Below are positions 8,047-47,100 of a stretch of DNA of 64,000 nucleotides, piece by piece. The stretch is from Prevotella sp. (GTDB lineage Bacteria; Bacteroidota; Bacteroidia; Bacteroidales; Bacteroidaceae). Position 1 is the stretch's first letter. The number at the start of each line of letters is the position of its first letter. The translations under genes were made by a program, and so were the position numbers. Below the pieces are notes generated by a model. The model made no database searches. It saw only the letters and a list, made by a program, of their open reading frames with translations, and had not been told where the DNA came from. Location of the stretch: NCBI GenBank assembly GCA_017459445.1, contig JAFUDJ010000033.1, positions 35,790-99,789 of the forward strand, read 5' to 3'.

Positions 8047-8169
8047 TTTCTCCGCTAAACATGTTTCATTTCTCCGCTAAACCAACTCTGTTTCTCCGCT
8101 AAACCAACATCGTTTACCGGAGAAATGAAACACATTTAGCGGAGAAACTATATACGTTTAGCGGAGAAA
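8047..8169. repeat. 22-bp-period array: 3 direct + 3 inverted copies of TTTCTCCGCTAAAC
   Basis: Direct copies of the 14-mer TTTCTCCGCTAAAC begin at 8047, 8069 and 8091. The reverse complement (GTTTAGCGGAGAAA or a one-base variant) begins at 8112, 8134 and 8156. Spacing is 22, 22, 21, 22, 22 bp. The 8-bp spacers vary. The array fills most of the 324-bp gap between mutY and glf; the rest (7987-8046) shows nothing recognisable. The arrangement can fold into a large cruciform or stem-loop. Its function is unknown. Confidence 0.9.
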
Positions 8170-8249
8170 CTGAAAACGAACCGCCATAAAACGAGCTGCC
8201 ATGCGACACGACAGCATGTACAAAATGACAAGAAAAAACGGGCTTTCCC

Positions 8250-8280
8250 TTTGTTTTTTACGCGTTTTTTCTTACTTTTG
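8250..8280 (+). promoter_or_regulatory. glf promoter
   Basis: TTTG at 8250-8253, 19-bp spacer, TACTTTTG at 8273-8280. This matches the Bacteroidota housekeeping promoter and lies 30 bp before the glf ATG at 8311. Confidence 0.8.
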
Positions 8281-8310
8281 CATACTGTTTCAACCAAAAG
8301 ACGACTGTTT

Positions 8311-9432
8311 ATGTACGATTATCTTATCGTTGGCTCCGGCCTGTTCGGCGCCACTTTCGCATGGCGGGCCCGACAGGCGGGGCGCAGGTGCCTGGTCATA
8401 GACCGCAGGAACCATACGGGCGGCAACGTCCGCTGCGAGCGGATGGAGCATATCAACGTGCACCGCTACGGCGCTCACATCTTCCATACGGACAGCGACG
8501 AGGTGTGGCGGTTCGTCAACTCGCTGGTGCCCTTCAACCGTTTTACCAACAGTCCGGTAGCCTGCTACGGCGGGAAACTCTACAACCTCCCCTTCAACAT
8601 GAACACCTTCTACCAGATGTGGGGCGTGAAGACACCGGCCGAGGCGGCGGCGAAGCTCGACGAACAGCGCGCCGAGGCCCGCGCGGCCATGGAGCGGCAG
8701 GGCGCCAGCGAGCCGCGCAACCTGGAGGAACAGGCGCTGCTGCTCATCGGGCGCGACATCTACGAGGCGCTGATTAAGGGCTATACGGAGAAACAGTGGG
8801 GGCGGCGCTGCACGGAGCTGCCGGCCTTCATCATCCGCCGGCTGCCCGTACGCCTGGTATTCGACAACAACTACTTCAACGACCGCTACCAGGGGATACC
8901 GGAAGGGGGCTACAACCGGCTGACGGACAAGCTGCTGGAAGGCGCCGACGTACGCCTGGGCACCGACTACCTGGCCAACCGCGACTACTGGAACGGGCTG
9001 GCCCGGAAGGTGGTCTACACGGGGGAGATTGACAGCTACTACAACTACCGCTTCGGACGGCTGGAATGGCGCACGGTACGCTTTGAGACCGAGGTGCTGC
9101 CCGTGGCCAACTACCAGGGCTGCGCCGTCGTCAACTACACGGAAGCGGACGTGCCCTACACCCGCATCATCGAGCATAAGCACTTTGAAACGTTCGGCGC
9201 CGACGTCGACAAGAACCCGGCGACGGTCATCTCACGCGAGTATTCTATGGAGTGGCAGCCCGGCATGGAGCCTTACTATCCCGTCAACGACGAGCGCAAC
9301 CAGCGCCTCTACGAGCAGTACCGCGCGCTGGCCGAGGCGGAAGAGAACGTCGTCTTCGGCGGACGGCTGGCGGAACACAAGTACTACGACATGGCACCCA
9401 TCGTGGAACGGGCGCTGGCGCTCGACGTGTAA
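8311..9432 (+). CDS. glf: UDP-galactopyranose mutase
   Basis: Flavoenzyme that interconverts UDP-galactopyranose and UDP-galactofuranose for surface glycans. The N-terminal FAD-binding segment reads MYDYLIVGSGLFGATFAW, followed by the family segments GGNVRCE, HRYGAHIFHT and LPFNMNTFYQMWGV. Later conserved stretches are GYTEKQWGR, IPEGGYN and YPVNDERNQRLYEQYR. Start chosen at 8311, because upstream in-frame codons overlap the promoter and a typical Glf begins right at the flavin motif. 373 residues is the normal length. No glycosyltransferase gene is next to it. Confidence 0.95.
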   Translation: MYDYLIVGSGLFGATFAWRARQAGRRCLVIDRRNHTGGNVRCERMEHINVHRYGAHIFHTDSDEVWRFVNSLVPFNRFTNSPVACYGGKLYNLPFNMNTFYQMWGVKTPAEAAAKLDEQRAEARAAMERQGASEPRNLEEQALLLIGRDIYEALIKGYTEKQWGRRCTELPAFIIRRLPVRLVFDNNYFNDRYQGIPEGGYNRLTDKLLEGADVRLGTDYLANRDYWNGLARKVVYTGEIDSYYNYRFGRLEWRTVRFETEVLPVANYQGCAVVNYTEADVPYTRIIEHKHFETFGADVDKNPATVISREYSMEWQPGMEPYYPVNDERNQRLYEQYRALAEAEENVVFGGRLAEHKYYDMAPIVERALALDV

Positions 9433-9497
9433 CGGTCGGCGCCAGCAAATATTTGTTCATCAGAAAATGTCAGAATGAATCGGGACAGAAGGCCGTC

Positions 9498-10823: not shown

Positions 10824-11764
10824 ATTTTAGTTATTAAAGTTTCACATAAGCATTCGTGCCGACGGCGCATATACCAGTATAACGGTTGCAGCACTACTAT
10901 TTCAAATAACGGATAAAGCCACGGAATATTGATTAACATCGCAACAAAAAGTGCAAAGGCACGCGTGTTGTGGGTCAGGATGTTGGTCAGGGGCATGAGT
11001 TTCCTGGACGTAGTCAGGAACTCGGACTTGAGAACCGGGAGCTGAAGACCGGGAACTGAAGACCGCGAATCCAGGCCCATGGCCCGCTTCAGCGCCTGGA
11101 AGCGGGGCGTCAGCCGCTCCTGCTTCTTGCAATAGCCCTTGTAGAAGTAATGATAGATGCGGGCATACGACCATCCCTGCTGCCGCAACCCGTCGTAGAT
11201 GTGCTGCTCTTTCGCGTAGCTGTCCAGCTCGCTGCCGCCATCGCCCTTCAGGAACCACAGATGGATGTTGCGGTAATAGTCGGCCAACGCACACTGCGTG
11301 GCATGGCAATACAGGCCGGCAACGGCGCACAGCAGGAAGCCCCAGCCCTGCCACTCGACACCCGCCACGGGCATCGGCTCATGCCAAAGCCGGTAGATGA
11401 CGGCCAGATAGGCACAGGTGAACCAGACGTCGCTGGCAAAGCCGTCGAGCAGGCGCCCCAGCAGCGTCTTCTGGTTGGTGAGCCGCGCCAGCTGTCCGTC
11501 GGCAGAGTCGCAGAAGTTGGCAGCCATCAGCAGGGCGACGCCACAGACATTGTGCCCAAGGTCGGTGTAATGGAACATCCAGCCCGCTGCCATGCCCAGC
11601 AGGATGCCCGCAATGGTTATCATATTGGGCGTCAGCCTCAGGCGATGGCAGACCATAGCCAGCGCCAGTCCGATGGGGCGTGTAAACCAAATGTCGAGCC
11701 ATTCTTCCGTTTCGTTCGACTTAAACGACTCGCGCAGCAACTGTCTGTAGCCTTTGTTTTTCAT
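10820..11764 (-). CDS. CDP-alcohol phosphatidyltransferase, probable phosphatidylinositol-phosphate synthase
   Basis: Integral membrane enzyme joining a CDP-activated lipid to an alcohol. The CDP-alcohol signature is visible as CDSADGQLAR, then 8 residues, GRLLDGFASD; I count four residues between the last two acidic positions, where the textbook motif has three. Hydrophobic segments surround it and continue to the C-terminus. Coupling to myo-inositol-phosphate synthase suggests that inositol phosphate is the acceptor, as in the Bacteroides inositol-lipid locus. I see no adjacent phosphatase gene such as the Bacteroides cluster has. Start taken at 11764 (MKNKGYRQLL) because the alternative ATG at 11776 falls inside the promoter box. 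Confidence 0.85.
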   Translation of the reverse strand: MKNKGYRQLLRESFKSNETEEWLDIWFTRPIGLALAMVCHRLRLTPNMITIAGILLGMAAGWMFHYTDLGHNVCGVALLMAANFCDSADGQLARLTNQKTLLGRLLDGFASDVWFTCAYLAVIYRLWHEPMPVAGVEWQGWGFLLCAVAGLYCHATQCALADYYRNIHLWFLKGDGGSELDSYAKEQHIYDGLRQQGWSYARIYHYFYKGYCKKQERLTPRFQALKRAMGLDSRSSVPGLQLPVLKSEFLTTSRKLMPLTNILTHNTRAFALFVAMLINIPWLYPLFEIVVLQPLYWYMRRRHECLCETLITKI

Positions 11765-11773
11765 ATTCGCTTG

Positions 11774-11805: not shown

Positions 11806-11911
11806 TAGAAAGCGGGCTTTCTTTTTGTATTTCCGAACGAAAAGTAAGTTCGGCGAAGCCAAAGTTACGAAATATTTCACAATTTATAATTTATAATTCA
11901 TATTTATTTTC

Positions 11912-12305: not shown

Positions 12306-13070
12306 ATGAAAAACATTTATTTCCTATCCGATGCCCATCTGGGGTCGCGAGCCGTGCCACATGGCAGGATGCAGGAGCGGCGCCTGGTGCGTTTCCTTGA
12401 CAGCATCAAGGAGAAAGCTGCCGCCATCTACCTGCTTGGCGACATGTTCGACTTCTGGTACGAATACAAGTATGTGGTGCCAAAAGGCTTCACCCGCTTC
12501 TTAGGAAAGCTCTCCGAGTTGACTGACATGGGCGTCGAGGTGCACTACTTCACCGGCAACCACGACATCTGGGCCTACGAATACCTGGAGAAGGAATGCG
12601 GCGTAACGCTGCACAAGAAGGCTGAGACGACGGAGATATACGGCCATGAGTTCTTCCTGGCCCACGGCGACGGCATGGGCGACGGCAACAGGTCGTTTAA
12701 GGCTATCCGCGCCATATTCCACAACCGGGTGTGCCAATGGCTGTTCTCGGCACTGCATCCCCGCTGGGGAATAGACTTCGGACTGACATGGGCCCGGCAT
12801 AGCTACGTCAGGCATAAGGAGCGCAACGACGTGGCATACCTCGGCGAAGACAAGGAGCCGCTGGTGCTCTTTGCCAAGGAGTATGTCAAGGAGCATCCCG
12901 ACATCGACTACTTTATCTTCGGCCACCGACACATCGAGCTGGACATGAAACTGGCACGGCATACGCGGCTGATGATTCTGGGCGACTGGATTTCGCAGTT
13001 CACCTATGCCGTCTATGACGGCGAGCATATGTTCCTCGAAGAGTATGTGGAGGGCGAAAGCCAGCCGTGA
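12306..13070 (+). CDS. lpxH: UDP-2,3-diacylglucosamine diphosphatase-like metallophosphoesterase (LpxH-like)
   Basis: Lipid A pathway enzyme hydrolysing UDP-2,3-diacylglucosamine to lipid X. The calcineurin-type metal ligands appear in order: SDAHLG, GDMFDFW, GNHD, HGDG and GHRH. The segment FDFWYEYKYVVP, in place of the E. coli sequence, is the form seen in Bacteroidota. Length 254 is usual. The stop codon TGA (13068-13070) is part of the first unit of a heptad repeat that runs to kdgK. Confidence 0.85.
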   Translation: MKNIYFLSDAHLGSRAVPHGRMQERRLVRFLDSIKEKAAAIYLLGDMFDFWYEYKYVVPKGFTRFLGKLSELTDMGVEVHYFTGNHDIWAYEYLEKECGVTLHKKAETTEIYGHEFFLAHGDGMGDGNRSFKAIRAIFHNRVCQWLFSALHPRWGIDFGLTWARHSYVRHKERNDVAYLGEDKEPLVLFAKEYVKEHPDIDYFIFGHRHIELDMKLARHTRLMILGDWISQFTYAVYDGEHMFLEEYVEGESQP

Positions 13071-13143
13071 AAAGTGAAGAATGAACGGTGATGAGTGAAG
13101 AATGAAGAGTGAAGAGTGTAAAATGAATAGTGATTAGTGATAC
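13067..13143 (+). repeat. Heptad repeat (11 units of RTGANNN type)
   Basis: Eleven consecutive 7-bp units, for example GTGAAAA, GTGAAGA, ATGAACG, GTGATGA and GTGAAGA, exactly in register from 13067. The array includes the lpxH stop codon and ends 5 bp before the kdgK ATG. The same unit family recurs at 29805-29846. Confidence 0.9.
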
Positions 13144-14225: not shown

Positions 14226-14291
14226 CTATCACAAGAGGAACGACTAACTATCCCAAGAGGAACGGCTAACTATCACAAGGGAAACGACTAA
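14226..14291. repeat. 22-bp direct repeat, 3 units, between kdgK and sufB
   Basis: Three tandem 22-bp units start at 14226, 14248 and 14270, each beginning CTATC and containing a core close to CAAGAGGAACG. A fourth partial unit (CTATCC, 14292-14297) supplies the sufB stop codon on the minus strand. Confidence 0.9.
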
Positions 14292-15776
14292 CTATCCTAC
14301 CGTGCCCTCTAACGACACGGAAAGGAGCTTCTGTGCCTCGACGGCAAACTCCATGGGGAGCTTCTGCAGCACCTCCTTGGCATAGCCGTTGACGATAAGT
14401 CCGACGGCTTGTTCCGTCGGTATGCCGCGCTGGTTGCAATAGAACAGCTGGTCTTCGGAGATTTTCGAGGTCGTAGCCTCGTGCTCGAAGACTGCCGTGT
14501 CGTTATGCACGTCCATATAAGGGAAGGTATGTGCGCCGCATTCGCTGCCCAGCAGCAGTGAGTCGCAGCTGGAATAGTTGCGGGCGTTGTCGGCATTCGA
14601 CGTGGCACGCACCAGTCCCCGGTACGAATTCTGCGAGTGGCCTGCCGAGATACCTTTCGAGATGATGGTCGATTTCGTGTTCTTACCCATGTGAATCATC
14701 TTCGTCCCCGTGTCGGCTTCTTGGTAGTTATTGGTGACAGCGACGCTGTAAAACTCAGCTTGCGAGTTGTCACCCCGCAACACACAGGAGGGATATTTCC
14801 ACGTAATGGCGCTACCCGTCTCCACTTGTGTCCACGACAACTTGCTGTCAACGCCGCGCAAGTCGCCGCGTTTGGTGACGAGGTTGAGCACGCCGCCGCG
14901 TCCCTGCTCGTCGCCGGGATACCAGTTCTGGACGGTAGAGTACTTCACTTCGGCACGGTTCATGACGATGATTTCGACGATGGCAGCGTGCAACTGGTTT
15001 TCGTCGCGCATCGGGGCGGTGCAGCCTTCCAGGTAGGATACGTACGAGTCGTCGTCGGCCACGATGAGCGTACGTTCAAACTGCCCGGTATTACGGGCGT
15101 TGATGCGGAAATAGCTGCTCAATTCCATGGGGCAGCGCACGCCTTTGGGGATATAGACGAAGGAGCCGTCGCTGAAAACGGCACTGTTCAGTGCGGCAAA
15201 GAAGTTGTCGCGGTAGGGCACTACGGTGCCGAGATACTGGCGCACAAGGTCGCCATGCTCCTTGATAGCTTCGCCGATGGAGCAGAAGATGACGCCCTTC
15301 TCGCGCAGTTTATCCTTGAAAGTGGTCTTCACTGACACAGAGTCCATGATGGCATCCACGGCAGTATTGCCACTCAAGGCCAGGCGTTCCTCAAGGGGAA
15401 TGCCCAGCTTATCGAAGGTCTTTTCCAGCTCGGGGTCTATCCCGGAGGCACTGCTGCCGGGCACCGAACCGGCGGAAGAGCCGCTGGATGCAGGACGGGC
15501 CGTGGGGTCGGCATAGTAGGATATGGCCTGATAGTCGATAGGCGGCACATGGACGTGGCCCCACTTCGGCTCCGTCTGTGTCTGCCAGTAGCGAAAGGCC
15601 CGCAAGCGGAAGTCAAGCATCCACTCCGGTTCGCCCTTCTTGGCAGAGATGAGCCGGACAACGTCTTCGTTCAACCCCTTCTCTATCACTTCAGTGTGCA
15701 CGTCAGTGGTGAAGCCGAACTCGTATTTCTGCTCGGCCACCTGACGGACATATTGATTACTACGATTATTCTCCAT
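14292..15776 (-). CDS. sufB: Fe-S cluster scaffold subunit SufB
   Basis: Scaffold of the SUF Fe-S assembly complex. Conserved stretches include [62 protein letters not shown] and [11 protein letters not shown]. Start taken at 15776 ([13 protein letters not shown]); an upstream ATG adds four residues. Near residues 98-113 is a Ser/Gly/Ala-rich tract ([17 protein letters not shown]) just before the conserved DPELEKT segment; I read it as a repeat-born insertion. sufC and sufD, which normally follow, are absent: the next gene is convergent kdgK. Confidence 0.93.
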
Positions 15777-18689: not shown

Positions 18690-18699
18690 TCTTTCAATT

Positions 18700-18836
18700 C
18701 TTAATTCTTAATGCTTAATGCTTAACTGTTTCACACTCTTTTGTTCTTAATGCCTAATGCTTGATTCTGCTTACTGCCTGATGCTTGACTTGGCGTCAGC
18801 CCAATTAAGCATTAAGCATTAAGCATTAAGCATTAT
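18700..18836. repeat. Heptad array of TTAATGC and its inverse between nusA and infB
   Basis: Units of CTTAATG (several degenerate) run in one direction from about 18700, and GCATTAA units run in the opposite direction at about 18805-18836, with degenerate copies between. The nusA stop lies in the last units. The whole 143-bp intergenic space of this operon is made of the array. Confidence 0.85.
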
Positions 18837-20123: not shown

Positions 20124-20597
20124 TTATTTGAAGTTCAACTGGTACTTGCAGTACTTCACCTCGCCGACGGCGAACGTCTTGTCGACCTCCACCACGACGG
20201 GGCGCTTCCTGCCCTCCACGTGCTGCTTCTCCTTGACGGTGACGGTGAACTGCGTGCCGTCGGCGCTCACCTCCTTCAGGATGCCCTGCAGCTTCTGGCC
20301 GTCCTGCTGCATCACCTCCACCTCCTTGCCGACGTGGTTGCGGTACTGCTGTATCACCTTGAACGGCTGGCCGATGCCTGCCGAGCCTACTTCCAGCTCA
20401 TAGTCACCCAGCTCGTCGCCCAGCTTTTCCTGCAGGTGACGGCTCAGGTCTGCACAGTCTTCAATCCATACGCCGTCGGCATGGTCGATTTCAATCACGA
20501 TGCGCTCGTCGGCGGTCATTTCCACGTCTACCAAGTAGTAGTCTCCCTGCTGGAGCCACTCTTCCACTGCGGTCTGAATAGTGTTCTTGTCTATCAT
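20124..20597 (-). CDS. rimP: Ribosome maturation factor RimP
   Basis: Needed for 30S subunit maturation. Family segments: YYLVDVEMTADERIVIEIDHADGVWIEDCADLSRHLQEKL and YELEVGSAGIGQPF. The short C-terminal SH3-like domain contains the EVSADGTQFTVTV strand. 157 residues. First gene of the rimP-nusA-infB operon; it is preceded by a hairpin leader and a consensus promoter. Confidence 0.95.
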   Translation of the reverse strand: MIDKNTIQTAVEEWLQQGDYYLVDVEMTADERIVIEIDHADGVWIEDCADLSRHLQEKLGDELGDYELEVGSAGIGQPFKVIQQYRNHVGKEVEVMQQDGQKLQGILKEVSADGTQFTVTVKEKQHVEGRKRPVVVEVDKTFAVGEVKYCKYQLNFK

Positions 20598-20748: not shown

Positions 20749-20875
20749 ACTTTTATGTCAAACGGCGCGGACTTTTATGTCATTTAGCTCCAAGTTTTAT
20801 GTCAAAAGTCCGCAACTTTTGACATAAAAGTGCGCTCCGTTTGACATAAAAGTCCGTTCGATTTGCCATAAAAGT
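20749..20875. repeat. 22-bp-period array: 3 direct + 3 inverted copies of ACTTTTATGTCAAA
   Basis: Direct 14-mers start at 20749, 20771 and 20793; inverted copies (TTTGACATAAAAGT and a variant) start at 20818, 20840 and 20862. Spacings are 22, 22, 25, 22, 22 bp. The architecture equals the 8047-8169 array although the 14-mer is unrelated. It fills the centre of the 351-bp gap between rimP and mnmA, whose remainder holds the rimP promoter and leader and the hairpin at 20897-20926. Confidence 0.92.
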
Positions 20876-27830: not shown

Positions 27831-29815
27831 CACCTTATATATATCTCCTGACAGCCGCAGCCCTGCTGCTGGCCGTGCTGCTCTTCTACGGATGGCGCCG
27901 CAAGCGCCGCCAGGAGGGCGAGGAACAGGTGCTGTCCGTGCGCGACCTGACGGCCATGGCACTGAAAATCAGCGCGCACAACGTCATCGTCTTCGACATC
28001 AGCAGCGGCCATACCAGCCTGCTGAGCGGCAACATGCTGCCCGAGGGCGGTGCCAGCAAGGAGCTTTTCAAGGAGCATGTGCATCCCGACGATGTCGACA
28101 TGCTCGTCAGCCGCATCATGGAACTGGAGCGCGGCGAGAGCCAGCAGGCCGAGTTCTGCTATCGCTGGAACTACGAATTCGGCGGCGGCAAGCCCCGCTG
28201 GGGCTGGCTCCGCAACACGAGCGTGGCGGAATATGCCGGCGGCGACAAGCCTATCAGAGTCATCAGCGCCCTGGTGGACGAGACCGAGCTGCGCCGCCAG
28301 CAGTCGGAAGAGGCTGAGCTGGGCAACAAGTACCGCCTCATCTTCGAGAATTCCGTCGTCGCCCTGTCGTTCTATTCTGCCGACGGATGGCTGCTGGACG
28401 CCAATGCCATCATGCGCGAGATATGCCATTTCGACAGCGACAGCGGTGATGACTTCTTCTCCAATACCAACCTGTACGAGCAGGCGCCGTTCAACGAGCT
28501 GATAGACCGCAACCATGTCGAGGAGCTTTGGATATGCTTCCTCAGCGTTATTCCCGAGCGCGACATGCACGTCTATCTGGAAATCCACCTCCACCCCATC
28601 TACGACGACCAGGGGGAACTGGTATATATCGCACTCACCGTGCGCGATGTCAGCCAGGAACGTGAGATGTACCGGCAGGCCCGCGAAAACGACATCCGCC
28701 TGCGCGAGGCCAACGAGGACATCCGCCACTACGAACAGGAGCTGCGCTACATGATGGACAACAGCCGCATGCAGGCTTGGCGCATATCGCTCGACCGTAA
28801 CTGCCTGGAGTTCTACAGCGGTCTGAACACGCCGGTGCGTACATTCAACCTTGAGGACATGCGCCACATCTTTGTCAACAAGGAGGACGACTTCGTCCGC
28901 GCACTGGAAAATCCCGCTGAAGCCATCGCCCATCCGCTCAGCTACCAAGGGCAGGTGTACCCCATTGTGACGCATACCAGCACCGAAAAGCAATGGGTGC
29001 AGATAAATAGCATACCGGAATACGACGACAACGGGCACCTGCTGGGCAGCTTCGGCGTGTGGCGTAACATCACGGCCCTGATGGAAAAGCAGGAGCAGCT
29101 GCGCCGCGAGACGGAGCGCGCCAACGACTCGGGACGCATGAAGTCGGTGTTCCTGGCCAATATGACGCACGAAATCAGAACGCCGCTCAATGCCATCGTG
29201 GGCTTCTCCGACCTGCTACAGGCTGTCGAATCGCCCGAGGACCGCCGCGAGATGATTCGCGTCATCCATAACAACTGCGACATGCTGCTGCGGCTTATCA
29301 ACGACATTCTCGTGCTTTCCAACGTTGACGCCAACGCCATGCAGATAGTCTGCAAGGAAGTTGACTTTGCCCGTGAGTTCGATGACATCTGCCAGTCGCT
29401 GGCCCAGCGCGTCAGCAACCCTGCCGTCGAGTTCCAGAAGGAGAACCCATTCGACACACTGATGGCAAGCATCGACAAGAACCGCATCCAGCAGGTCATC
29501 ACCAATTTCGTGACCAACGCCGTCAAATACACGCAGCAGGGGCATATCCGCGTGGGCTACCGACAAGAGGAGCGCGACGGGCGGCCAGGCATCTACGTCT
29601 ATTGCAGCGACACGGGCGACGGCATTCCCGAGGACCAGCTCTCGCGTGTCTTCGAACGCTTCGTCAAGCTCAACGACTTCATACAGGGCACCGGGCTCGG
29701 ACTCTCCATCTGCAAGGCCATCATCGACAAGTGCGGCGGCCAGATTGGCGTGGAGAGCCAGCTGGGCAAGGGCTCTGACTTCTGGTTCTGGATACCAAGA
29801 TACAGTGAAGAGTGA
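27827..29815 (+). CDS. PAS-domain sensor histidine kinase (canonical)
   Basis: 662 residues. A single N-terminal membrane helix (TPYIYLLTAAALLLAVLLFYGW) is followed by a basic stretch and about three PAS domains. The H-box FLANMTHEIRTPLNAIVGFSDLL has the phosphoacceptor His448. The ATP-binding domain has FVTNAVKYT, DTGDGI, FERFVKL and GTGLGLSICKAI. Overlaps the upstream Tyr-variant kinase; the two are roughly similar in layout and length and look like an old tandem duplication. The last codons and the stop lie inside a heptad repeat. Confidence 0.92.
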   Translation: MTPYIYLLTAAALLLAVLLFYGWRRKRRQEGEEQVLSVRDLTAMALKISAHNVIVFDISSGHTSLLSGNMLPEGGASKELFKEHVHPDDVDMLVSRIMELERGESQQAEFCYRWNYEFGGGKPRWGWLRNTSVAEYAGGDKPIRVISALVDETELRRQQSEEAELGNKYRLIFENSVVALSFYSADGWLLDANAIMREICHFDSDSGDDFFSNTNLYEQAPFNELIDRNHVEELWICFLSVIPERDMHVYLEIHLHPIYDDQGELVYIALTVRDVSQEREMYRQARENDIRLREANEDIRHYEQELRYMMDNSRMQAWRISLDRNCLEFYSGLNTPVRTFNLEDMRHIFVNKEDDFVRALENPAEAIAHPLSYQGQVYPIVTHTSTEKQWVQINSIPEYDDNGHLLGSFGVWRNITALMEKQEQLRRETERANDSGRMKSVFLANMTHEIRTPLNAIVGFSDLLQAVESPEDRREMIRVIHNNCDMLLRLINDILVLSNVDANAMQIVCKEVDFAREFDDICQSLAQRVSNPAVEFQKENPFDTLMASIDKNRIQQVITNFVTNAVKYTQQGHIRVGYRQEERDGRPGIYVYCSDTGDGIPEDQLSRVFERFVKLNDFIQGTGLGLSICKAIIDKCGGQIGVESQLGKGSDFWFWIPRYSEE

Positions 29816-29846
29816 AAAATGAAAAGTGAATAGTGAAAAGTGAGTA
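29805..29846 (+). repeat. Heptad repeat (6 units) over the kinase stop codon
   Basis: Units GTGAAGA, GTGAAAA, ATGAAAA, GTGAATA, GTGAAAA and GTGAGTA in exact 7-bp register. The kinase stop TGA (29813-29815) falls in unit 2. Same unit family as 13067-13143. Confidence 0.88.
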
Positions 29847-29862: not shown

Positions 29863-31197
29863 ATGTCTACATTAACTATCTGTATTGTCGTGGCTTTCGT
29901 CGTGGGCTATCTCTGCATTGCCCTTGAGAGCCTGACGCGTATTAACAAGGCAGCCATAGCGCTGCTTATGTGTGTTGTCTGCTGGACCTTGCTGATGGTC
30001 AGCCCCGCCAGCTTCTATCCTGAGGTGGCGGCCGACGGGGTGATACACCACATTGCCGAAGTCATCGAGCATCATCTGGGTGACGCCGCCGGCACGCTGT
30101 TCTTCCTGATGGGAGCTATGACCATCGTCGAAATCGTCGATTCCAACGGTGGATTCAACTTTGTGCGCGACACGCTGAAGACACGTTCCAAGCGTAAACT
30201 CATGTGGCGCGTAGCCTTCATGACATTCTTCCTGTCGGCCATCCTCGACAACCTCACCACTTCCATCGTCATGATTATGGTGCTGCGCAAGCTGGTGCAG
30301 AGCCGCGAGGAGCGCATGATGTATGCCGCCCTTATCATCATATCGGCCAACTCCGGCGGTGCCTTCTCGCCCATCGGCGACGTCACCACCATCATGCTGT
30401 GGATTAAGGGCGTCATCACCACACAGGGCGTGCTGACCGAAATCTTCATTCCGTCGCTCGTCTCGATGGTCATTCCGGCAGCTATCATCAGCCTGTCGCT
30501 GAAGGGAAAGTTCGACAAGGAGCAGAACCTGCCCAAGGCCGACGTGAGCCAGTTCACCAAGGCGCAGCGCAACATCATCTTCTGGCTGGGCGTGGGCGGA
30601 CTCGTCTTCGTGCCCATCTTCAAGACCATTACCCACCTGCCGCCGTTTATGGGCATCCTGCTTGTGCTCGGCATTCTGTGGACGACCACCGAAATCTTCC
30701 ATTATAACACGTCGGAGGATGACACCATGGCCAAGCGTGTCTCGGACATCATGACCAAGATAGACCTCTCCACCATCATGTTCTTCCTCGGCATCCTCAT
30801 GGCCGTTGCCGTACTGCAGGAGGTCGGCGTGCTCACCATGCTCGGCAAGACGCTCGACACCACCTTCGAGGGCAACCACTATCTCGTGACAGGCATCATC
30901 GGTGTGCTCAGTTCTATCGTCGACAATGTGCCTCTCGTAGCCGGATGCATGGGCATGTATCCCGTCCAGGCAGCAGGCGACCTGGCCATCGACGGCATCT
31001 TCTGGCAGTTGCTGGCCTACTGTGCCGGTGTCGGCGGTTCGCTGCTTATCATCGGTTCTGCCGCCGGCGTCGTCGTCATGGGCTTGGAGAAGATTACCTT
31101 CGGCTGGTACATGAAGCGCATCACCTGGATAGCTTTCGCTGGCTACCTATCGGGTATCCTTATCTATTGGGTTGAACGTACCTTCCTGTTCGCATAA
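29863..31197 (+). CDS. nhaD: Na+/H+ antiporter, NhaD type
   Basis: Inner-membrane antiporter of 444 residues with about 11-12 hydrophobic helices. Family segments: FFLMGAMTIVEIVDSNGGFNF, SAILDNLTTSIVM, ISANSGGAFSPIGDVTTIMLW and SSIVDNVPLVAGCMGMY, each with conserved Asp/Asn/Thr residues in helices. It stands alone, 48 bp after the kinase pair; linkage to the kinases is possible but not shown. A perfect hairpin terminator follows. Confidence 0.93.
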   Translation: MSTLTICIVVAFVVGYLCIALESLTRINKAAIALLMCVVCWTLLMVSPASFYPEVAADGVIHHIAEVIEHHLGDAAGTLFFLMGAMTIVEIVDSNGGFNFVRDTLKTRSKRKLMWRVAFMTFFLSAILDNLTTSIVMIMVLRKLVQSREERMMYAALIIISANSGGAFSPIGDVTTIMLWIKGVITTQGVLTEIFIPSLVSMVIPAAIISLSLKGKFDKEQNLPKADVSQFTKAQRNIIFWLGVGGLVFVPIFKTITHLPPFMGILLVLGILWTTTEIFHYNTSEDDTMAKRVSDIMTKIDLSTIMFFLGILMAVAVLQEVGVLTMLGKTLDTTFEGNHYLVTGIIGVLSSIVDNVPLVAGCMGMYPVQAAGDLAIDGIFWQLLAYCAGVGGSLLIIGSAAGVVVMGLEKITFGWYMKRITWIAFAGYLSGILIYWVERTFLFA

Positions 31198-38966: not shown

Positions 38967-39602
38967 TTAGGCTGCTTTCTTCGTAGCAGTGGATTTCGTC
39001 TCTGTATCCACTTTCTTGATGAAGCGGCCTTTTTCGTCGCGGGCAGGAGTAGCCTTCTTGGTTTCTGCCTTCTTCGTGGTCGTAGTGGCCTTCTTAGCCG
39101 TTGTCCCGGCCTTCTTGGTGGTGGTAGTAGCCTTCTTCGTCTCGGCCTTCTTCGTGGTCGTAGTGGCCTTCTTGGCCGTCGTCGTGGTCGTAGCAGGCTT
39201 CTCGGCATCTACCTTTTTAATGAAGCGGCCTTTCTCGTCACGGGCGGGTGTGGCTTTCTTGGTCTCAGCCTTCTTGGTCGTCGTGGCTTTTTTAGCGGTC
39301 GTCTCGGCCTTCTTCGTGGTGGTAGTTGTAGCCGTTGTCGTGGTGGTGGCAGGCTTGGTGGCTGCCTTCTTGCTGGCAGTGGAAGCGGCTGCACCGTAGC
39401 AGCGTGTACACTCATGGCGGCCTAACTTCTTAGCCTCAGCAGCGGTCACACTCTTCACACTCTTTGAATTGGTGAGGTAGCTGCACGACTTGTTCTTGTG
39501 GTAGGCCACTGCGCCGTCACCTGTCGAGATGTAGACGGTTTGGGCACTTGCCGTCATGACAAAGGCCATGATGGCAACGAAAGTCATCAGGAATTTCTTC
39601 AT
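38967..39602 (-). CDS. Secreted Lys/Thr-rich basic repeat protein with a small Cys/His domain
   Basis: 211 residues. A signal peptide (MKKFLMTFVAIMAFVMTASAQ) is followed by a compact domain, VYISTGDGAVAYHKNKSCSYL...GRHECTRCYG, with one His and three Cys in an H-x4-C ... C-x2-C pattern that could bind a metal. Residues from about 75 on are low-complexity KKATTTTKKAETKKA repeats resembling histone H1 tails, with two copies of TPARDEKGRFIKKVD. Strongly basic. The function is unknown; possibilities are binding of extracellular DNA, polysaccharide or teichoic-type polymers. The repeats make its length likely to vary. Confidence 0.8.
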   Translation of the reverse strand: MKKFLMTFVAIMAFVMTASAQTVYISTGDGAVAYHKNKSCSYLTNSKSVKSVTAAEAKKLGRHECTRCYGAAASTASKKAATKPATTTTTATTTTTKKAETTAKKATTTKKAETKKATPARDEKGRFIKKVDAEKPATTTTTAKKATTTTKKAETKKATTTTKKAGTTAKKATTTTKKAETKKATPARDEKGRFIKKVDTETKSTATKKAA

Positions 39603-41242: not shown

Positions 41243-41710
41243 ATGTTTCTGCAAGATACGAAGACGATGGCAAACGAGATACAGAAGATACAGGCGCAAC
41301 AGCCGCAGGGCGAAATTGTCCTCTACCAGCCCGACGAGACCGTACGGCTTGAGGTTAAGCTGGAGGATGAAACCGTATGGCTTACACAGGCACAGATGGC
41401 AGAGCTGTTCCAGACAACCCGTAATAATATAACACTCCATATTGGCAATGTGTTCAAAGAGGGAGAACTTGTAGAAAGTTCAGTTCGTAAGGAATCCTTA
41501 CTTACTGCCGCCGATGGCAAGAAATATCACACAAAGCTATACAATCTAGATGTTATCATCTCCGTTGGCTATAGGGTTAAATCGCAGCGCGGCACACAAT
41601 TCCGGCAGTGGGCAAACTTGGTGATAAAGGATTATATGACAACGAACATAATGTTTCTACGAGATATGAAGACGATGACGAAGCGAGATAACATAGATGG
41701 AGGACACTGA
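41243..41710 (+). pseudogene. Truncated RhuM-family gene
   Basis: 155 residues. After MFLQDTKT the protein reads MANEIQKIQAQQPQGEIVLYQPDETVRLEVKLEDETVWLTQAQMAELFQTTRNNITLHIGNVF, the RhuM N-terminal DNA-binding-like domain, up to VGYRVKSQRGTQFRQWANLVIKDY. RhuM proteins normally continue for about 180 more residues. Here the reading frame passes into a copy of a 57-bp repeat (41634-41690) and stops. The first 25 residues are coded by DNA nearly identical to the start of the second RhuM-like gene at 43247. It may still be made as a short DNA-binding protein; start 41267 is an alternative. Confidence 0.75.
41634..41690 (+). repeat. 57-bp repeat, copy 1 (copies 2 and 3 at 42980-43036 and 44178-44234)
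   Basis: The three copies begin ATATGACAACGAACATAATG and end GAGATA or AAGATA with at most one or two differences. Copies 2 and 3 mark the start of the surface-protein leader; copy 1 ends the truncated RhuM. The sequence at 41243-41282 is a diverged partial copy. Confidence 0.92.
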
Positions 41711-41711
41711 G

Positions 41712-42968
41712 ATGACAAGAGAAGAACTCATAGAGCGACTGACAGATATAGAGTGGGATGACTTCGAGGTGAAGGAAGCCCGCGAGAAGATGCCCGACAA
41801 TGTATGGGAGACCGTCTCGGCCTTCAGCAACATGTCTGGTGGCTGGATTGTCTTTGGCGTCAGACAGAAGGGCAAACATTTCTTCATTGAGGGCGTAGAG
41901 AACGGCGAAAAGACTGAGTCGGACTTCCTCAATACGCTGCGCAACGGGCAGAAGTTCAACTTCAAGATTTACCCCAAAGGTGTGAAATACAGCATCGACG
42001 GACATTTGGTACTCGCCTTCCATATTCCATCGTCACCTTTCAAGCCCATCTATTTCGGTAACCCTATCAACACTTTCATCCGCTCTGGCAGTGCCGACCG
42101 CCGTGCCAACGAGATGGAGATTGCCGCATTGCAACGCGACCAAGCATTCGGCACAAAGTCAGAACAGGCTATATCAGGAACATCCATAGCAGACCTTGAC
42201 CGCGATTCCCTGAGCACCTATCGCAACTACCTGCAAGGGTTCAACGCTACGTTTATCTACAACGACCTTGACGATGCTGCCTTTTGCGAGAAACTGCGTG
42301 TCACCCTCAACGGTAATCTCACATACGCAGGCTTGCTTATGTTCGGACAACGTGACATCGTTCAGAAATATTGCCCTACATTCTGGGTAGACCTTATTGA
42401 GATACCTGGTAACTCTTACGCCGAGGCCGACAAACGCTATACCTTCCGTATGCCAGAGCAAGCCAACGTCTGGGAGTCATACCGTGCCATCATCCAACTC
42501 AAGTTCTTCCGCTATGCCAATCTCTCGGAAAACGCAGGCTACGGCATCGACAAGATGATACGCTGGGAACAGTTGACAGGACAGGAGGTGAAATTCGAGA
42601 CCGACATTTACAGCGGCACAGTCACCTATATACGACCTAACAAAAACTCTGTCACCAACTCTGTCACTAACTCTGTCACCAACTCCGTTACCAACTCTGT
42701 TACAAACTCTGTTACAAACTCTGTTACTGGTGTTAATTATGAGAAGGTGAAAAGTGTGTTAGGCATTTTGGCAGAACGCAGAGCTACAAGAAAGGAAATT
42801 CTTGCTTTTATCGGTGTGTCATACCATACGACAAACATCCGTAAATATATCAACCCTTTGATTGCAGCAGGACTTATCAAAGAGCCAGATGACAACAAAA
42901 CCAATAATCCTCATACCGTATTGATGATAACGGCCACAGGTATAAACTATTTGAATGGGAACAAATAA
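41712..42968 (+). CDS. AlbA_2 (Schlafen-type) domain protein with NSVT tandem repeat
   Basis: 418 residues from ATG 41712, which has GGAGG 8 bp upstream; ATG 41697 adds five residues. The N-terminal AlbA_2 domain is visible in FEVKEAREKMPDNVWETVSAFSNMSGGWIVFGVRQKGK. A middle region (TYAGLLMFGQRDIVQKYCPTFWVDLIEIPG) is typical of COG2865-like putative transcriptional regulators/ATP-binding proteins. Then follow seven NSVT units and a winged-helix C-terminus (RRATRKEILAFIGVSYHTTNIRKYINPLIAAGLI). The expected HATPase-like part appears shortened. Role unknown; members occur in accessory and defence-like loci. Confidence 0.85.
   Translation: MTREELIERLTDIEWDDFEVKEAREKMPDNVWETVSAFSNMSGGWIVFGVRQKGKHFFIEGVENGEKTESDFLNTLRNGQKFNFKIYPKGVKYSIDGHLVLAFHIPSSPFKPIYFGNPINTFIRSGSADRRANEMEIAALQRDQAFGTKSEQAISGTSIADLDRDSLSTYRNYLQGFNATFIYNDLDDAAFCEKLRVTLNGNLTYAGLLMFGQRDIVQKYCPTFWVDLIEIPGNSYAEADKRYTFRMPEQANVWESYRAIIQLKFFRYANLSENAGYGIDKMIRWEQLTGQEVKFETDIYSGTVTYIRPNKNSVTNSVTNSVTNSVTNSVTNSVTNSVTGVNYEKVKSVLGILAERRATRKEILAFIGVSYHTTNIRKYINPLIAAGLIKEPDDNKTNNPHTVLMITATGINYLNGNK
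42645..42728 (+). repeat. 12-bp tandem repeat, 7 units (NSVT)7
   Basis: Seven perfect-register 12-bp units (AACTCTGTCACC and variants with third-position changes), joining the catalytic-type region to the winged helix of the AlbA_2 protein. 12 bp keeps the frame, so unit number can vary without loss of function. Confidence 0.95.
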
Positions 42969-42981
42969 ACATACAAACGAT

Positions 42982-43227
42982 ATGACAACGAACATAATGT
43001 TTCTACGAGATATGAAGACGATGACGAAGCGAGATACTGACGGAATGCGATGCGGCAAGAAGACCGCAAGCGAAAACAGCATACTTAAGGGGCGCAAGTG
43101 CCATACTTATGCCTCGCAAGTGCCATATTTAGCAGGGCTAAACAATATACTTGCGAAGGCCATGCTGCTCACGCTGCTGTTCCTCGTAGGGGGAATAGGG
43201 AATAGGGCGTGGGCTGTCATATCATAA
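42982..43227 (+). pseudogene. Duplicated leader/signal-peptide fragment of the 5.8-kres surface protein
   Basis: The frame codes MTTNIMFLRDMKTMTKRDTDGMRCGKKTASENS...AKAMLLTLLFLVGGIGNRAWA and stops three residues later. It matches residues 1-75 of the giant protein at 44180 almost codon for codon. It contains the same 22-bp array (cores at 43080, 43102, 43124 and 43146). It is followed 13 bp later by the complete RhuM-like gene. Confidence 0.88.
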
Positions 43228-43240
43228 ACAGAAGGGAGAA

Positions 43241-44167
43241 ATGGTTATGGCAAACGAGATACAGAAGATACAGGCGCAACAGCCGCAGGGCGAAATTGTC
43301 CTCTACCAGCCAGACGAGACCGTACGTCTTGAAGTCAGACTGGAGAACGAGACGGTTTGGCTGAACCGTCAGCAACTTGCAACACTATTTGGCAGAGACG
43401 TGAAAACCATAGGCAAACATATAGCCAATGCACAGAAGGAAGAACTAAGAAAGATTCCAACTGTCGCAAAATTTGCGATAGTTCAGACAGAGGGAAAACG
43501 AAAGGTGACCCGCATGGTGGAATTCTATAGCATTGATATGGTTATTTCCGTCGGCTATCGTGTCAAATCAGAAAAAGGTATAGAATTCCGTATATGGGCT
43601 AACCAAGTACTTAAAGACTATCTGCTCCGTGGCTATACTGTAAACTATCAGATGCGTCAGTTAGAGCATCAGATGGAATTGCAGCAAGACGAGATACACA
43701 ACATCAAACAAACTCTGGGCGAGCACCAGCAGAAGATAGACTTCTTCGTGCGAACAAACCAGCCACCTGTGGAAGGAGTGTTCTTCGAAGGCCAGATATT
43801 CGATGCCTACCGATTTGTCTCCGGTATAATCCGTAAAGCGCATGAAAGGATTGTGCTGATAGACAACTATGTTGACGATACGGTGCTGACGATGCTCGAC
43901 AAACGTTCAAGTGGGGTAACTGCCACAATCTATACTCAGCACATCGGCCATCAGCTCCAGTTGGACATAGACCGCCATAACGCTCAATATGCAACCATCA
44001 CCATTGAACAGTTCGGTCTTTCCCACGACCGGTTCCTGCTCATCGACGATGAGGTCTACCACATCGGGGCGTCCCTGAAGGACTTGGGCAAGAAATGGTT
44101 TGCCTTCACCCTGATGCGCGACCTTACAGCACAGGACCTGATTCAAAAGATAAACAAAGCAAGATAA
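43241..44167 (+). CDS. RhuM-like protein with a C-terminal PLD-like domain
   Basis: 308 residues (306 from ATG 43247). The N-terminal part repeats MANEIQKIQAQQPQGEIVLYQPDETVRLEV, then a RhuM/KilA-type DNA-binding-like domain (VWLNRQQLATLFGRDVKTIGKHIANAQKEEL), VEFYSIDMVISVGYRVKSEKG and a coiled coil (QMRQLEHQMELQQDEIHNIKQ). The C-terminal half (EGQIFDAYRFVSGIIRKAHERIVLIDNYVDDTVL...HDRFLLIDDEVYHIGASLKDLG) resembles a phospholipase D-like module with HxRxxxxD. Probably intact. Placed between two copies of the surface-protein leader. Confidence 0.82.
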   Translation: MVMANEIQKIQAQQPQGEIVLYQPDETVRLEVRLENETVWLNRQQLATLFGRDVKTIGKHIANAQKEELRKIPTVAKFAIVQTEGKRKVTRMVEFYSIDMVISVGYRVKSEKGIEFRIWANQVLKDYLLRGYTVNYQMRQLEHQMELQQDEIHNIKQTLGEHQQKIDFFVRTNQPPVEGVFFEGQIFDAYRFVSGIIRKAHERIVLIDNYVDDTVLTMLDKRSSGVTATIYTQHIGHQLQLDIDRHNAQYATITIEQFGLSHDRFLLIDDEVYHIGASLKDLGKKWFAFTLMRDLTAQDLIQKINKAR

Positions 44168-44179
44168 CCACTACGAAAT

Positions 44180-47100
44180 ATGACAACGAACATAATGTTT
44201 CTACGAGATATGAAGACGATGACGAAGCAAGATATTGACGGAATGCGCTGCGGCAAGAAGACCGCAAGCGGAAACAGCATACTTATGGGGCACAAGTGCC
44301 ATACTTATGCCTCGCAAGTGCCATACTTAGCAGGGCTAAACACCATACTTACGAAGGCTATGCTGGTGACGCTGCTGTTCCTCGGAGGGGGAATGGTGAA
44401 TGACGCGTGGGCAGCCACCTACACTTACCACATCGTTGACGGAAGCGGTAAAGACATCATCACGGCAACCAGCACAAGCGGAACACTTGTTGCACCTGAT
44501 GAGATTAACAGCCCGTGGTGTGACCTCACCTATTGGGATGCTGCAACAGGAGGAACTCAGCTGAATGCTGTTCCTGGCTCAGACGCAGACATTTATGTTC
44601 GTTATACGGTAAAAACAGCTTATGAACGGTATTTCAATGGAACTACGTGCTTTGAGATGAATGTTAACGGCTCCGTTATCTGGGCGCAGCGTCCAAATGT
44701 AAAAGCCTATAATTCAAGAAGCAATACTCGAGACGTTATTGACACAGAGTATTATAAGTATTGGAGGATGGAAGGCGATCCTTATTCTTTCCGACTCTAT
44801 AATGCGCGAAAGGGAGAAGGTGTTAACCCTGGACCTCTCTCTCTACTGTCTGATCTGGATTCTGGAACATCTGATTTGGAGTTCTCCACAAGTGATGGCG
44901 TCTATAGCGATATGATGGTATTATATCATACTACAAGCGCCAATCCAAACAACTTCGCATTTCGTTTTGTCAATACGACAAAAGAAATATATCTGAACAG
45001 CAACAATCCGGTAAAAGCTTGGGTAACTTCAAGCAGAGATAACGGCGGCAACAAGATAACACTTACTCCTAAAGCATTTGTTACATATCATTTGGTAAGT
45101 CGTGACAACACGGTAGTATTCTCGTATATGCAGGCCAGTAATGATGCTCTGACTGCAGCACCGGCACTGAATTCAAATTTCATCAGTCCCGCTGCCACTA
45201 ATTTCCATTACTATACAACGCAAGCTAAAGCGTATGCAAATACTGAAAGTAGTGATATTACACAGTTGGCTGATGCAGCGAATTCGGCAGGACATGTCTA
45301 TGTCGGTTATGATTATAATCCAAGTAATAGCGTAACAATAGGCAGCAAGAATTATACCGTCAGTTTCGATGGCTCGAAACTTTACTCTTTTTGTCGTAAT
45401 ACAGATCCAACTGCCAATACTTACCTTCGGTTCAGTTCTGCTACCGACAACCCCAAAACCGATCAGTCGTATGATGGCGAAGACTACAGCCTGTTCAGAC
45501 TTAATAGCGTAGACAATAGTCATCCCGACCCATATCGTTTTACGATAAACTGTGAAGCTTTCAGTGATTACCACGTTTCTTCGAGTTATGGTAATGGAAA
45601 TGTAGCTTATCATGGCGGTACACAAAACAAACAATATAATGTAGATACAGAAATCCAATATTTTTCATACTTAAAAGATGGAAAGGTTATTGCTTTTGCC
45701 ATCGATGCCGATGATACTGACGATTATAACACCTATGCCTGTTATTGGAATACAGGTGAATGGTTTCAATTCTATGGTGGAAATAATTCGCTCATGCCGA
45801 CCATTGTTGATGCAGTAAACCTTGGGGTGTATAATAACGCAGTTCCTATTATTTTTGAAGAAAGAGAAAAGAAGGTAAATGCGACTTTCAATATCATAAG
45901 TATAGACCACGATGGAAATGGAGGCGAATTGCTTTATACATTCGCCTGCACGGGTGATGCCGGTGGTGTGATAGACATTCCTAACCAGTATAAGAGTCCT
46001 TTGGCAAAGAACTACAAGTTCTATACAGCAGAGCAGTTTACCATCAGTGACGGATTATACAAATTAAATCCGAGTGCGACAGAGACCACCAGGTTCTCGA
46101 CAACCGATGGTTCCGTCTATTATGTGAAATACGAGTATGACGATGCAAACAGCGTAACGATGGGTTCCAATACCCTCAAGATTGACCTGTCTGGCAATAC
46201 TATCTACAAATGGAATCTCCAAACAGAGGCCTCACCTCAATGGCAGGTGACAGGCAGCACCACTGCAACAACACAGTTCAACAGTAAAAACGTTACCTAC
46301 ATAGGCGTTGACCAAAGTCATACCGAAACCCCAACTACATGGACGAGTAATTTCTTATGGACCTTGGAGGGGAATGACCCTTATAACTTTGTTATCCGCA
46401 ATGTGGCAAATCCCCTTTATTTCTATTCCTGGCAGAATGGAACAGGCTATCCAACAAGTAAAACGCACAAGCGCATCTGGAACGAGGCGCAGGCTACTGC
46501 CAGTGGGGCTGCTTTCATCAAGCACTGGGCTCTGCTTGCAGACAACAAGTTGATAAGTGAGGATGCCGGTGATGGTTACGTAATCTTTCATCATAACGAT
46601 GGATGGGCAAACGGAGTGCTTTTAGCGAATATAGCTTCCACCAGCGAAGCAGATGTATTATTCAGTCTTCCTGACTTAGTCACCTATCACGTCGTCAACA
46701 AGTCGAACGCAATAGCCATCTCCAAGACCATCACACCAGCTTCTGGCAGCATCACAATGCCCGACGACCTGAAGACGCCATACATTACCGACAACAACAA
46801 CTACAAGTTCTTCTCTACGCAGGCCGATGCCTACGCCTATAGCAGTGCGGCCAATGATGCCGCTCGCACCACAGCAGCAACAAAAGCCATCAGCGGAACA
46901 GTCCATGCAGGACAAGTCATCTATGTGGGTTACTATTACGACGAGAACGCACGTCCCAGCGACCTTCCTATACTTGACGGTTCGGTATGGTATCAGATGA
47001 TCAACAACGGCACCAAATATTGGAAAGGCGTTTGGAACAGCAATCTAGGAAACACATCGCCTGACAAGGACACGTCAGGTGGGTCACAAGATGAATATCT

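What the first reader, a model, noticed from the sequence alone, without database searches (positions are those of the whole stretch)
8047..44351. A family of 22-bp-period arrays whose architecture is conserved but whose sequence is not
Five arrays in this window share an exact or near-exact 22-bp period: 8047-8169 (TTTCTCCGCTAAAC), 14226-14297 (CTATC..CAAGAGGAACG), 20749-20875 (ACTTTTATGTCAAA), and the related pair 43080-43153 and 44278-44351 (CATACTTA). Two have the same design of three direct then three inverted 14-mers separated by 8-bp variable spacers, yet the 14-mers are unrelated. Common descent of one element cannot explain that; a mechanism that copies whatever local sequence is present at two-helical-turn spacing, or selection for structure alone, would. 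I know of no named element with this behaviour.
Basis: partly seen in the sequence, partly recalled or inferred. Interest (0 to 1): 0.85.

Follow-up and report, generated by a model that had tools for sequence, protein, structure and literature searches.

The report
Species-private 22-bp site arrays in Prevotella
Between genes, this rumen Prevotella and its relatives carry many short rows of DNA sites set 22 bases apart; the spacing is shared but the sequence of the sites differs between most of the species looked at, as if an unidentified, fast-changing protein grips the DNA there.

Summary
The arrays are real. The two 3+3 arrays belong to two dispersed families of this 1.97-Mb MAG. TTTCTCCGSTAAAC forms 10 arrays of six units; TTTCTCCG and TAA are unchanged in 60 of 60 units. 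ACTTTTATGTCAAA forms at least 12 two-armed arrays. The A and B pair patterns are in none of 300 other family genomes sampled, A in none of 397 others of the genus. The last two arrays of the finding are one 235-bp duplication. A de novo scan finds 22-bp arrays above lags 20, 23 and 25 in five genomes of the genus (weakest in one) and two other genera, with motifs of their own (two species share theirs). In one complete genome a 13-mer occurs 219 times (control 0), neighbours mostly 22 bp apart centre to centre in any orientation. The one family with enough units shows no arm covariation; there is no target-duplication signal and no Y1 (RAYT) transposase in 7 of 7 genomes. Best reading: rows of dyad sites for an unidentified DNA-binding protein, two helical turns apart, partly dispersed by copying. 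The nearest description found is the 23-bp BrickBuilt MITE of Porphyromonas.

The parts
8047..8169 (.). Family A array: 3 direct + 3 inverted TTTCTCCGSTAAAC units; centres of the 13-mer TTTCTCCGSTAAA 22 bp apart throughout, also across the inversion
   Evidence: one of 10 such arrays in the MAG; between mutY-like ORF 6703-7986 and UDP-galactopyranose mutase ORF 8251-9432
8170..8191 (-). Outer unit of the A array in 22-bp register (TTTTATGGCGGTTCGTTTTCAG on the minus strand), of the B-like type found outside A arrays
   Evidence: row L011 rightRC, unit next to the core; the register test used the further-out units of 20 arms
14226..14297 (+). Direct-only array, 3.2 copies of CTATCACAAGAGGAACGACTAA, between the convergent PfkB-type kinase and SufB genes (reaches 6 bp into the SufB ORF end)
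   Evidence: no dyad: 28 of 66 against shuffle maximum 31
20749..20875 (.). Family B array: 3 direct + 3 inverted ACTTTTATGTCAAA units; centre step about 23 bp; upstream of the ORF 20124-20597 (rimP by position, not scanned), nusA and infB, downstream of mnmA
   Evidence: 93% identical over 129 bp to the copy in L045
43080..43153 (+). Direct array with unit CATACTTA(N)6GCAAGTGC type; first copy of a duplicated 5' segment
44278..44351 (+). Same array in the second copy of the 235-bp duplication, at the 5' end of the 5838-aa ORF
   Evidence: 91.9% over 235 bp

Best explanation
These are dispersed intergenic rows of dyad (pseudo-palindromic) binding sites for a sequence-specific DNA-binding protein, probably a dimer that assembles cooperatively on one face of the helix because the sites are two helical turns (22 bp) apart. 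Some families keep a fixed number of sites per array (6 in A, 4 in family III). Arrays have been dispersed as whole units by copying (B best, A less clearly). The recognised sequence turns over between species while geometry is kept, as expected if protein and sites co-evolve. Shown: the sites, the spacing, the constancy of the motif in A, dispersal, private dialects in the genomes sampled. Inferred: that a protein binds, that it is a dimer, that binding is cooperative. Not known: which protein, and whether it is a transposase acting on its own elements or a host factor (roadblock, insulator or nucleoid anchor between transcription units).
For: Motif constancy against spacer drift: over 60 A units (found with up to 3 mismatches) TTTCTCCG and TAA are unchanged in 60 of 60, while spacer positions carry 0.18-0.83 bit. 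Exact geometry: 10 of 10 A arrays are 3+3 with the same centre. In G009, over 30 sampled sites (27 loci, three counted twice), start-to-start distances are 22 for direct neighbours (18 and 4 pairs), 20 for facing (19) and 24 for back-to-back (5); these 46 of 57 pairs fit a single 22-bp centre-to-centre step, and the other 11 are mostly overlapping or weak matches allowed by the 3-mismatch limit. Half-sites independent: 72 units of family II show no excess of Watson-Crick pairing between arms over shuffles (z -1.9 to 0.7 at ten positions, three of which hardly vary). Unit number: family III 4 in 9 of 10 arrays, 5 in one; family II 3 in 20 and 4 in 3 of 23, but arrays shorter than 3 were not counted. 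Dialects. Dispersal.
Against: No protein has been found, and no binding data exist here. Copying of whole B arrays with sharp ends looks like transposition, which would make the sites transposase sites rather than a host system. B arrays have two to four recognisable units per arm, and G009 arrays three in 19 of 30 windows, so a fixed number is not general. Some dialects (G150) are direct-only with variable unit number, some inside longer repeats, closer to a minisatellite. Covariation: only family II is a good test; one of eleven positions in family III (12 units) had z = 2.3, a first looser site set had z up to 4.3 at outer positions (discarded because it took in many sites outside arrays), and in L187 6 of 8 units have complementary arms in two spellings, which hints at paired change there. 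Enrichment between convergent genes is clear only in G009 (12 of 26 placed loci, expected fraction 0.116) and slight or absent elsewhere. Family A and B units are only partly dyad-symmetric. Other periods (14-16, 18, 21, 24) are also common in some sets.
Confidence: 0.48

Rival explanations
1. Non-autonomous mobile elements (MITE-like) whose whole length is transposase-binding sites, several 22-bp sites per end, in the manner of IS21, Mu or Tn7 ends; each species has its own active family, and newer elements land in the middle of older ones, giving nested arrays.
For: The window's B array is 93% identical to L045 over only the 129-bp array at an unrelated site, and other B pairs run from about 70 to 94%; family III and G135 arrays have distinctive outermost sequences; A cores sit inside outer, differently spelled units in exact 22-bp register on both arms (lag-22 identity 0.437 against 0.23-0.30 at other lags; in-register information 6.65 bits against 1.58 +- 0.21 for random phase; L023 and L027 of the ten are a segmental duplicate).
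Against: No clear target-site duplication signal: mean longest flank match A 3.50 against 3.37 in mismatched pairs, B 4.17 against 3.60 (three of 12 with 6 bp), II 3.30 against 3.24. No IstA C-terminal domain (PF22483) in G000 nor in 9 of 9 same-genus genomes in the sample, with control genomes ringing. The A sites listed in G000 are all in compact arrays with no gene inside. Neutral decay after insertion would not leave the motif frozen and the spacers diverged, unless turnover is fast. Other DDE transposase families were not tested.
Confidence: 0.3
2. Minisatellites: 22-bp units made by slippage or unequal exchange in intergenic DNA, without function, like BrickBuilt direct repeats.
For: Direct-only arrays with variable numbers exist (G150, window 14226); outer units around A arrays look locally duplicated in 22- and 44-bp steps (by eye); other periods are common too.
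Against: Does not explain the same motif at many loci, inversion with the 22-bp register kept, or frozen motif with drifting spacers.
Confidence: 0.1
3. RNA or single-strand hairpins (terminators, REP-like palindromes, guide-like RNAs).
For: 3+3 and facing pairs can fold (dyad scores 49 and 48 of 66 for the window A and B arrays against shuffle maximum 31); G009 arrays avoid divergent gaps; arms of L187 units seem to change together in 6 of 8 units.
Against: No arm covariation in family II; no Rfam family in the window; direct-only arrays exist; Y1/RAYT transposase absent in 7 of 7 genomes.
Confidence: 0.09

Closest known systems
BrickBuilt MITE / 23-nt minisatellite of Porphyromonas gingivalis (PMC4596501; abstract, passages and section 7 part 1 read)
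   Same: Species-specific, multi-copy (19 in one strain), intergenic tandem repeat of about two helical turns in a Bacteroidales genome; the paper also cites 22-nt repeats in strain W83
   Different: 23-bp period without spacers, direct repeats, 1 to 22.8 copies, leader and tail with IS5-type TIRs; here 22 bp, in several families an inverted second half in register, and many dialects across a family
REP / BIME / REPIN elements with RAYT (features recalled; PMC2817692 and PMC3733652 seen in search listings only)
   Same: Many short intergenic, often palindromic, species-private repeats
   Different: No Y1 transposase in the 7 genomes tested; arrays in strict 22-bp register; no arm covariation in family II
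IS21, Mu, Tn7 transposon ends (IS21: passages of PMC11208146; Mu and Tn7 recalled)
   Same: Two or more repeated transposase sites per end, inverted between ends
   Different: No PF22483 protein in this genome or 9 same-genus genomes; in 18 IS21 loci of the family, periods of 23-24 stood out in some and the A and B motifs in none (at most 2 mismatches)
Stoperators of cluster A mycobacteriophages (passages of PMC9283540)
   Same: Dispersed 13-mer sites in intergenic spaces
   Different: Stoperators follow transcription direction; G009 arrays do not (5 co-directional, 8 opposed, of 13 tandem loci); they are phage sites, here chromosomal

Membership tests
REP/REPIN-RAYT system | Y1 (RAYT) transposase encoded in the genome | tested here: not met
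   PF01797 in 0 of 7 genomes, six of them listed at 99% completeness and G000 at 55%; 5 of 14 control genomes ring
REP/REPIN-RAYT system | Palindrome maintained as a hairpin | tested here: inconclusive
   Not met in family II, 72 units; family III 12 units only, one position z 2.3; L187 6 of 8 units hint at paired change; A and B hardly vary
MITE | Short intergenic dispersed copies with defined ends | tested here: met
   B copies align over about the array only; family III ends similar between copies
MITE | Target-site duplication | tested here: not met
   A, B, II flanks not clearly better than mismatched pairs
MITE | Autonomous relative with the same ends | tested here: inconclusive
   None among the A sites of a 55% complete MAG; IS21 type not found by PF22483; other DDE transposases not searched
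BrickBuilt | 23-bp direct repeats flanked by leader/tail with IS5-type TIR | tested here: inconclusive
   Period is 22 and inverted halves occur; the published TIR was not searched for
IS21 ends | IstA transposase associated | tested here: not met
Phage stoperators | Sites oriented with transcription | tested here: not met
   5 against 8 of 13 tandem loci in G009
Known RNA families | Rfam match over the arrays | tested here: not met
   0 matches at gathering score in the 64-kb window

The most novel reading that the evidence does not exclude
Bacteroidaceae chromosomes carry a genome-wide system of nucleoprotein anchor sites, tens to (by extrapolation) hundreds per genome, built on an invariant 22-bp, two-turn register; the cognate protein's sequence specificity changes so fast that most species have their own dialect, and new dialects are written into the centre of old arrays, leaving tree-ring layers of earlier specificities around the current core.
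Probability: 0.3. Interest if true: 0.88.

Novelty: new variant of a known kind. Interest (0 to 1): 0.72.

Why it matters
If a protein reads these arrays, it is an abundant DNA-recognition system of gut and rumen bacteria that none of my nine searches on repeats or transposons showed described in Prevotella, with specificity that diverges between species; that makes the co-evolution of a DNA-binding protein with many genomic sites directly testable, and the layered arrays would record past specificities. If the arrays are mobile instead, they are an unusually abundant MITE class made only of phased sites. Either way they matter for assembly, promoter and terminator annotation, and small-RNA calls in these genomes.

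Tried and rejected
IS21 (IstA) ends: set aside for want of the protein in G000 and same-genus genomes; 18 IS21 loci showed some 23- and 24-bp periods but no A or B motif. REP/RAYT: no Y1 transposase. Phage origin: A and B pair patterns in 0 IMG/VR contigs. Finding the same dialect in relatives for an empty-site comparison: A in 1 of 301 family and 1 of 398 genus genomes, both G000 itself, and in 0 of 14 genomes behind related loci; B in 1 of 301. These genome sets are even samples of larger groups. Orthologous flanks: of 23 arrays or array clusters tried, only two had both flanks in another locus. Segatella copri L165 against L168 lacks the array but differs also by a tRNA-like duplication; L159 against L158/L151/L148 is about 160 bp longer but too diverged to place ends. 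A pair of species sharing dialects (G056, G092) gave no orthologous blocks, only three matches of 600 bp or more, in 460 kb each. The first covariation test used a too permissive site search (z up to 4.3 at outer positions of family III-like sites) and was discarded, redone within arrays. Autonomous element in G150: the long shared flanks of L245/L251/L252 carry large ORFs that look like a duplicated primase/helicase region, and those of L227/L230 are another segmental duplication; neither looks like a transposon carrying the array (gene naming by eye, no Pfam scan). Literature: ten searches, judged from their listings; none that named Prevotella listed a description of such arrays there; the library holds open-licence PMC papers only. 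PMC5771137: passages only; PMC1525189, PMC2817692, PMC3733652 and other titles: listing only. Mu and Tn7 analogies are recalled.
Full report
1. What is in the window. The array at 8047-8169 has three direct and three inverted TTTCTCCGCTAAAC-type units, and 20749-20875 has the same plan with ACTTTTATGTCAAA. The array at 14226-14297 is three direct copies with no inverted half. The pair at 43080 and 44278 is a single array inside a 235-bp segment duplicated at 91.9% identity. So the finding's five arrays are four independent ones, two of which are 3+3.

2. They are families. In the MAG (G000: 1,974,015 bp, 46 contigs, 55% complete) the A motif with at most one mismatch has 56 sites, all within ten arrays, against 0 for the reversed pattern. 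With up to three mismatches each of the ten arrays has exactly six units. Over these 60 units TTTCTCCG and TAA are unchanged in 60 of 60, position 9 is C (37) or G (23), and the eight spacer positions carry 0.18-0.83 bit. The B motif has 47 sites (control 1) in 12 arrays with two arms, of two to four recognisable units each, one single-armed array (L115) and one lone site on contig 14; a looser pair pattern adds at least one more place on contig 3, and its list was cut short. B arrays fall into sub-families (by eye); pairs of copies align at about 70 to 94%, the window copy at 93% to L045 over 129 bp, which is just the array. A copies reach 91% over 130 bp (L011 and L018); L023 and L027 share longer flanks and are a segmental duplicate. 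A spacers at homologous positions are more alike than in any of 2000 permutations (0.524 against 0.465 +- 0.013). So within a motif family there is common descent. The 23 A and B arrays examined lie between ORFs or overlap short ORFs; by my start choice two long ORFs (L036, L053) reach 24 bp into an array. In the window the neighbours are unrelated housekeeping genes.

3. They are private, in the samples drawn. The two-unit A pattern is found in 1 of 301 genomes of the family and 1 of 398 of the genus, each time G000 itself, and in 0 of 14 genomes behind related loci with up to three mismatches. The B pattern is found in 1 of 301, again G000. Neither is in IMG/VR. The genus is Prevotella by the relatives found with SufB.

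4. The architecture is general. I scanned for stretches in which at least 27 of 44 bases equal the base 22 further on. Counts at lag 22 were: G000 25 in 458 kb; same-genus G005 5 and G150 5 in 200 kb each, G056 13 and G092 14 in 120 kb each; other genera of the family, G135 8 and G009 8 in 200 kb each; 48 loci closest by SufB 25 in 832 kb. Lags 19, 20, 23, 25 and 26 gave 0-5 in each set. But other lags are common in some sets: 14, 15, 16, 18, 21 and 24 gave 8, 8, 15, 13, 16 and 17 in G000 and 20, 30, 15, 16, 27 and 21 in the 48 loci; in G005 lag 15 (6) beats lag 22 (5, one of them a CA repeat), and by eye one G092 array is a GA repeat. Nine further Bacteroidetes loci gave 0 in 180 kb, and 23 distant loci 2, both in L212, in 353 kb. 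I set these groups by SufB rank: L196 (titled Prevotellaceae) sits among the nine, L155 (titled Bacteroidales) among the 48, and L208 (titled Bacteroidetes) among the 23. One Markov-1 control per set gave 0 in nine sets and 1 in the 23. These loci surround one gene, so they are not random samples. In 460 kb each of G056 and G092 lag 22 gave 55 and 34, against 0-3 and 3-10 at lags 19, 20, 23, 25 and 26; in G092 lags 16 and 21 gave 21 each. Named isolates also have such arrays: Segatella copri Indica (L165), Prevotella pectinovora (L176), Hallella colorans (L183).

5. Dialects. G150 has TTTCTACGATCAAACGTTT (32 sites at up to two mismatches, control 0; direct arrays of varying length). G009 has TGACACCGACATG (219 exact sites in 3.0 Mb, control 0), and the two-unit pattern, at up to one mismatch, occurs 93 times in G009 and in neither of the two other genomes held of its genus. 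G135 has TTTTGTACAAAA-type arrays (three of its eight). G056 and G092 share GCACNNNNNGTGC and CCCTTTTGAAG families; a TTTTCATGAAAA family clustered in G056 only, though one similar array is listed for G092. In G056 and G092 together 14 of 89 arrays were singletons.

6. The register. In 30 sampled G009 sites (27 loci, the first 30 plus-strand sites listed, not a random draw) neighbours are 22 bp apart when direct, 20 when facing and 24 when back to back, start to start: 46 of 57 pairs, all fitting one 22-bp centre-to-centre step; the other 11 are at 6, 9, 11, 16 or 89 bp and mostly overlapping or weak matches. The same arithmetic gives 22 across the inversion of A (13-mer centre) and about 23 for B. 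So '3+3' is a continuous row of pseudo-symmetric sites whose orientation flips in the middle. Unit number: A 6 in 10 of 10; family III 4 in 9 of 10 and 5 in one (an eleventh chain was an unrelated match); family II 3 in 20 and 4 in 3 of 23, with shorter arrays not counted; G009 three in 19 of 30 windows.

7. Sites rather than hairpins, with a reservation. In family II (72 units, consensus CTCCGCACCATTGGTGCTGAG) the two arms vary independently: pairing is no better than shuffled at any of ten positions (z -1.9 to 0.7; three of them hardly vary). That is expected of two half-sites each read by a protein subunit. Family III had 12 units, with one position at z 2.3. A looser first test had positive z at some outer positions and was discarded because it included many sites outside arrays. 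In L187, 6 of 8 units have complementary arms in two spellings, so paired change is not excluded there. No Rfam family matches in the window.

8. Layers. Outside the A core, on both arms of the ten arrays, lie degenerate units of a B-like kind (around TTT..TG.C...T) in the same 22-bp register: lag-22 identity 0.437 against 0.23-0.30 at other lags, in-register information 6.65 bits against 1.58 +- 0.21 with random phase. B flanks show a weaker excess (0.341 against 0.24-0.28), partly because decayed third units of some arms fall in the flank. L166, another species, has a 3+3 core (dyad 53 of 66) inside a different outer repeat (outer part judged by eye). Either new elements land in the centre of old ones or arrays grow from the centre; I cannot tell which.

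9. What it is not. No Y1 (RAYT) transposase in 7 of 7 genomes; no IstA domain in G000 or 9 same-genus genomes; no clear target-site duplication (three of 12 B arrays have a 6-bp match, one of 23 II arrays a 7-bp one); no orientation bias with transcription in G009 (5 against 8 of 13). In G009 arrays are over-represented between convergent genes (12 of 26 placed loci, base fraction 0.116, binomial p = 1.2e-5) and rare between divergent ones (1); in G056 and G092 the shift is in the same direction but slight (16 of 53 against 0.18, 9 of 32 against 0.22), and in the other sets slight or absent. My ORF caller is crude.

10. Verdict. The best reading is phased arrays of protein-binding sites with species-private dialects, dispersed at least partly by copying. 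The protein, and whether it serves the host or the element, is unknown. The nearest description I found is BrickBuilt of P. gingivalis (PMC4596501), which has the species-specific two-turn direct repeat but not the inverted halves or the family-wide change of sequence. On checking I lowered the main reading from 0.50 to 0.48 and raised the hairpin rival from 0.07 to 0.09, because of the L187 units and because the counts of units per array in family II leave out short arrays.

Noticed in passing
window 44180-61696: A 5838-aa ORF without Pfam match in its first 800 aa; a 235-bp segment at its 5' end (44178-44412) is duplicated upstream (42980-43214) on the far side of a RhuM-type gene (43241-44167).
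   Followed up: partly
window 13067-13140, 18696-18725, 18804-18835, 29804-29843: Several 7-bp (and 21-bp) tandem repeats such as ATTAAGC and AGTGAAA.
   Followed up: no
window 42644-42727: Seven copies of a 12-bp repeat (AAACTCTGTTAC) inside the ORF with a Schlafen AlbA_2 domain (41697-42968).
   Followed up: no
window 39048-39206: Overlapping 21-, 30- and 36-bp repeats within the minus-strand ORF 38967-39602.
   Followed up: no
window 30990-31077: ARAGORN calls a tRNA-Ser with anticodon ACT inside the 444-aa ORF 29863-31197; probably a false positive.
   Followed up: no
L105:1193-1653, L108:11036-11479, L109:5933-6394: A roughly 460-bp dispersed element (82-86% identical, three copies on one contig) with inverted arms of an 11-bp-type repeat (GTAGTTTCATG) and a 22-bp palindrome array near its centre.
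   Followed up: partly
L112:8875-8973 and L120:4636-4756: A 21-bp-period array (AAACGGTGAGCGTTTTTCGGC type) in two loci of G000, in opposite orientations.
   Followed up: no
G009:C1 about 2,175,000-2,328,000: No listed plus-strand site or two-site array of the dialect over about 153 kb, the widest such gap I noticed below 2.36 Mb; could be an inserted element or a chromosome domain. Lone minus-strand sites were not listed.
   Followed up: no
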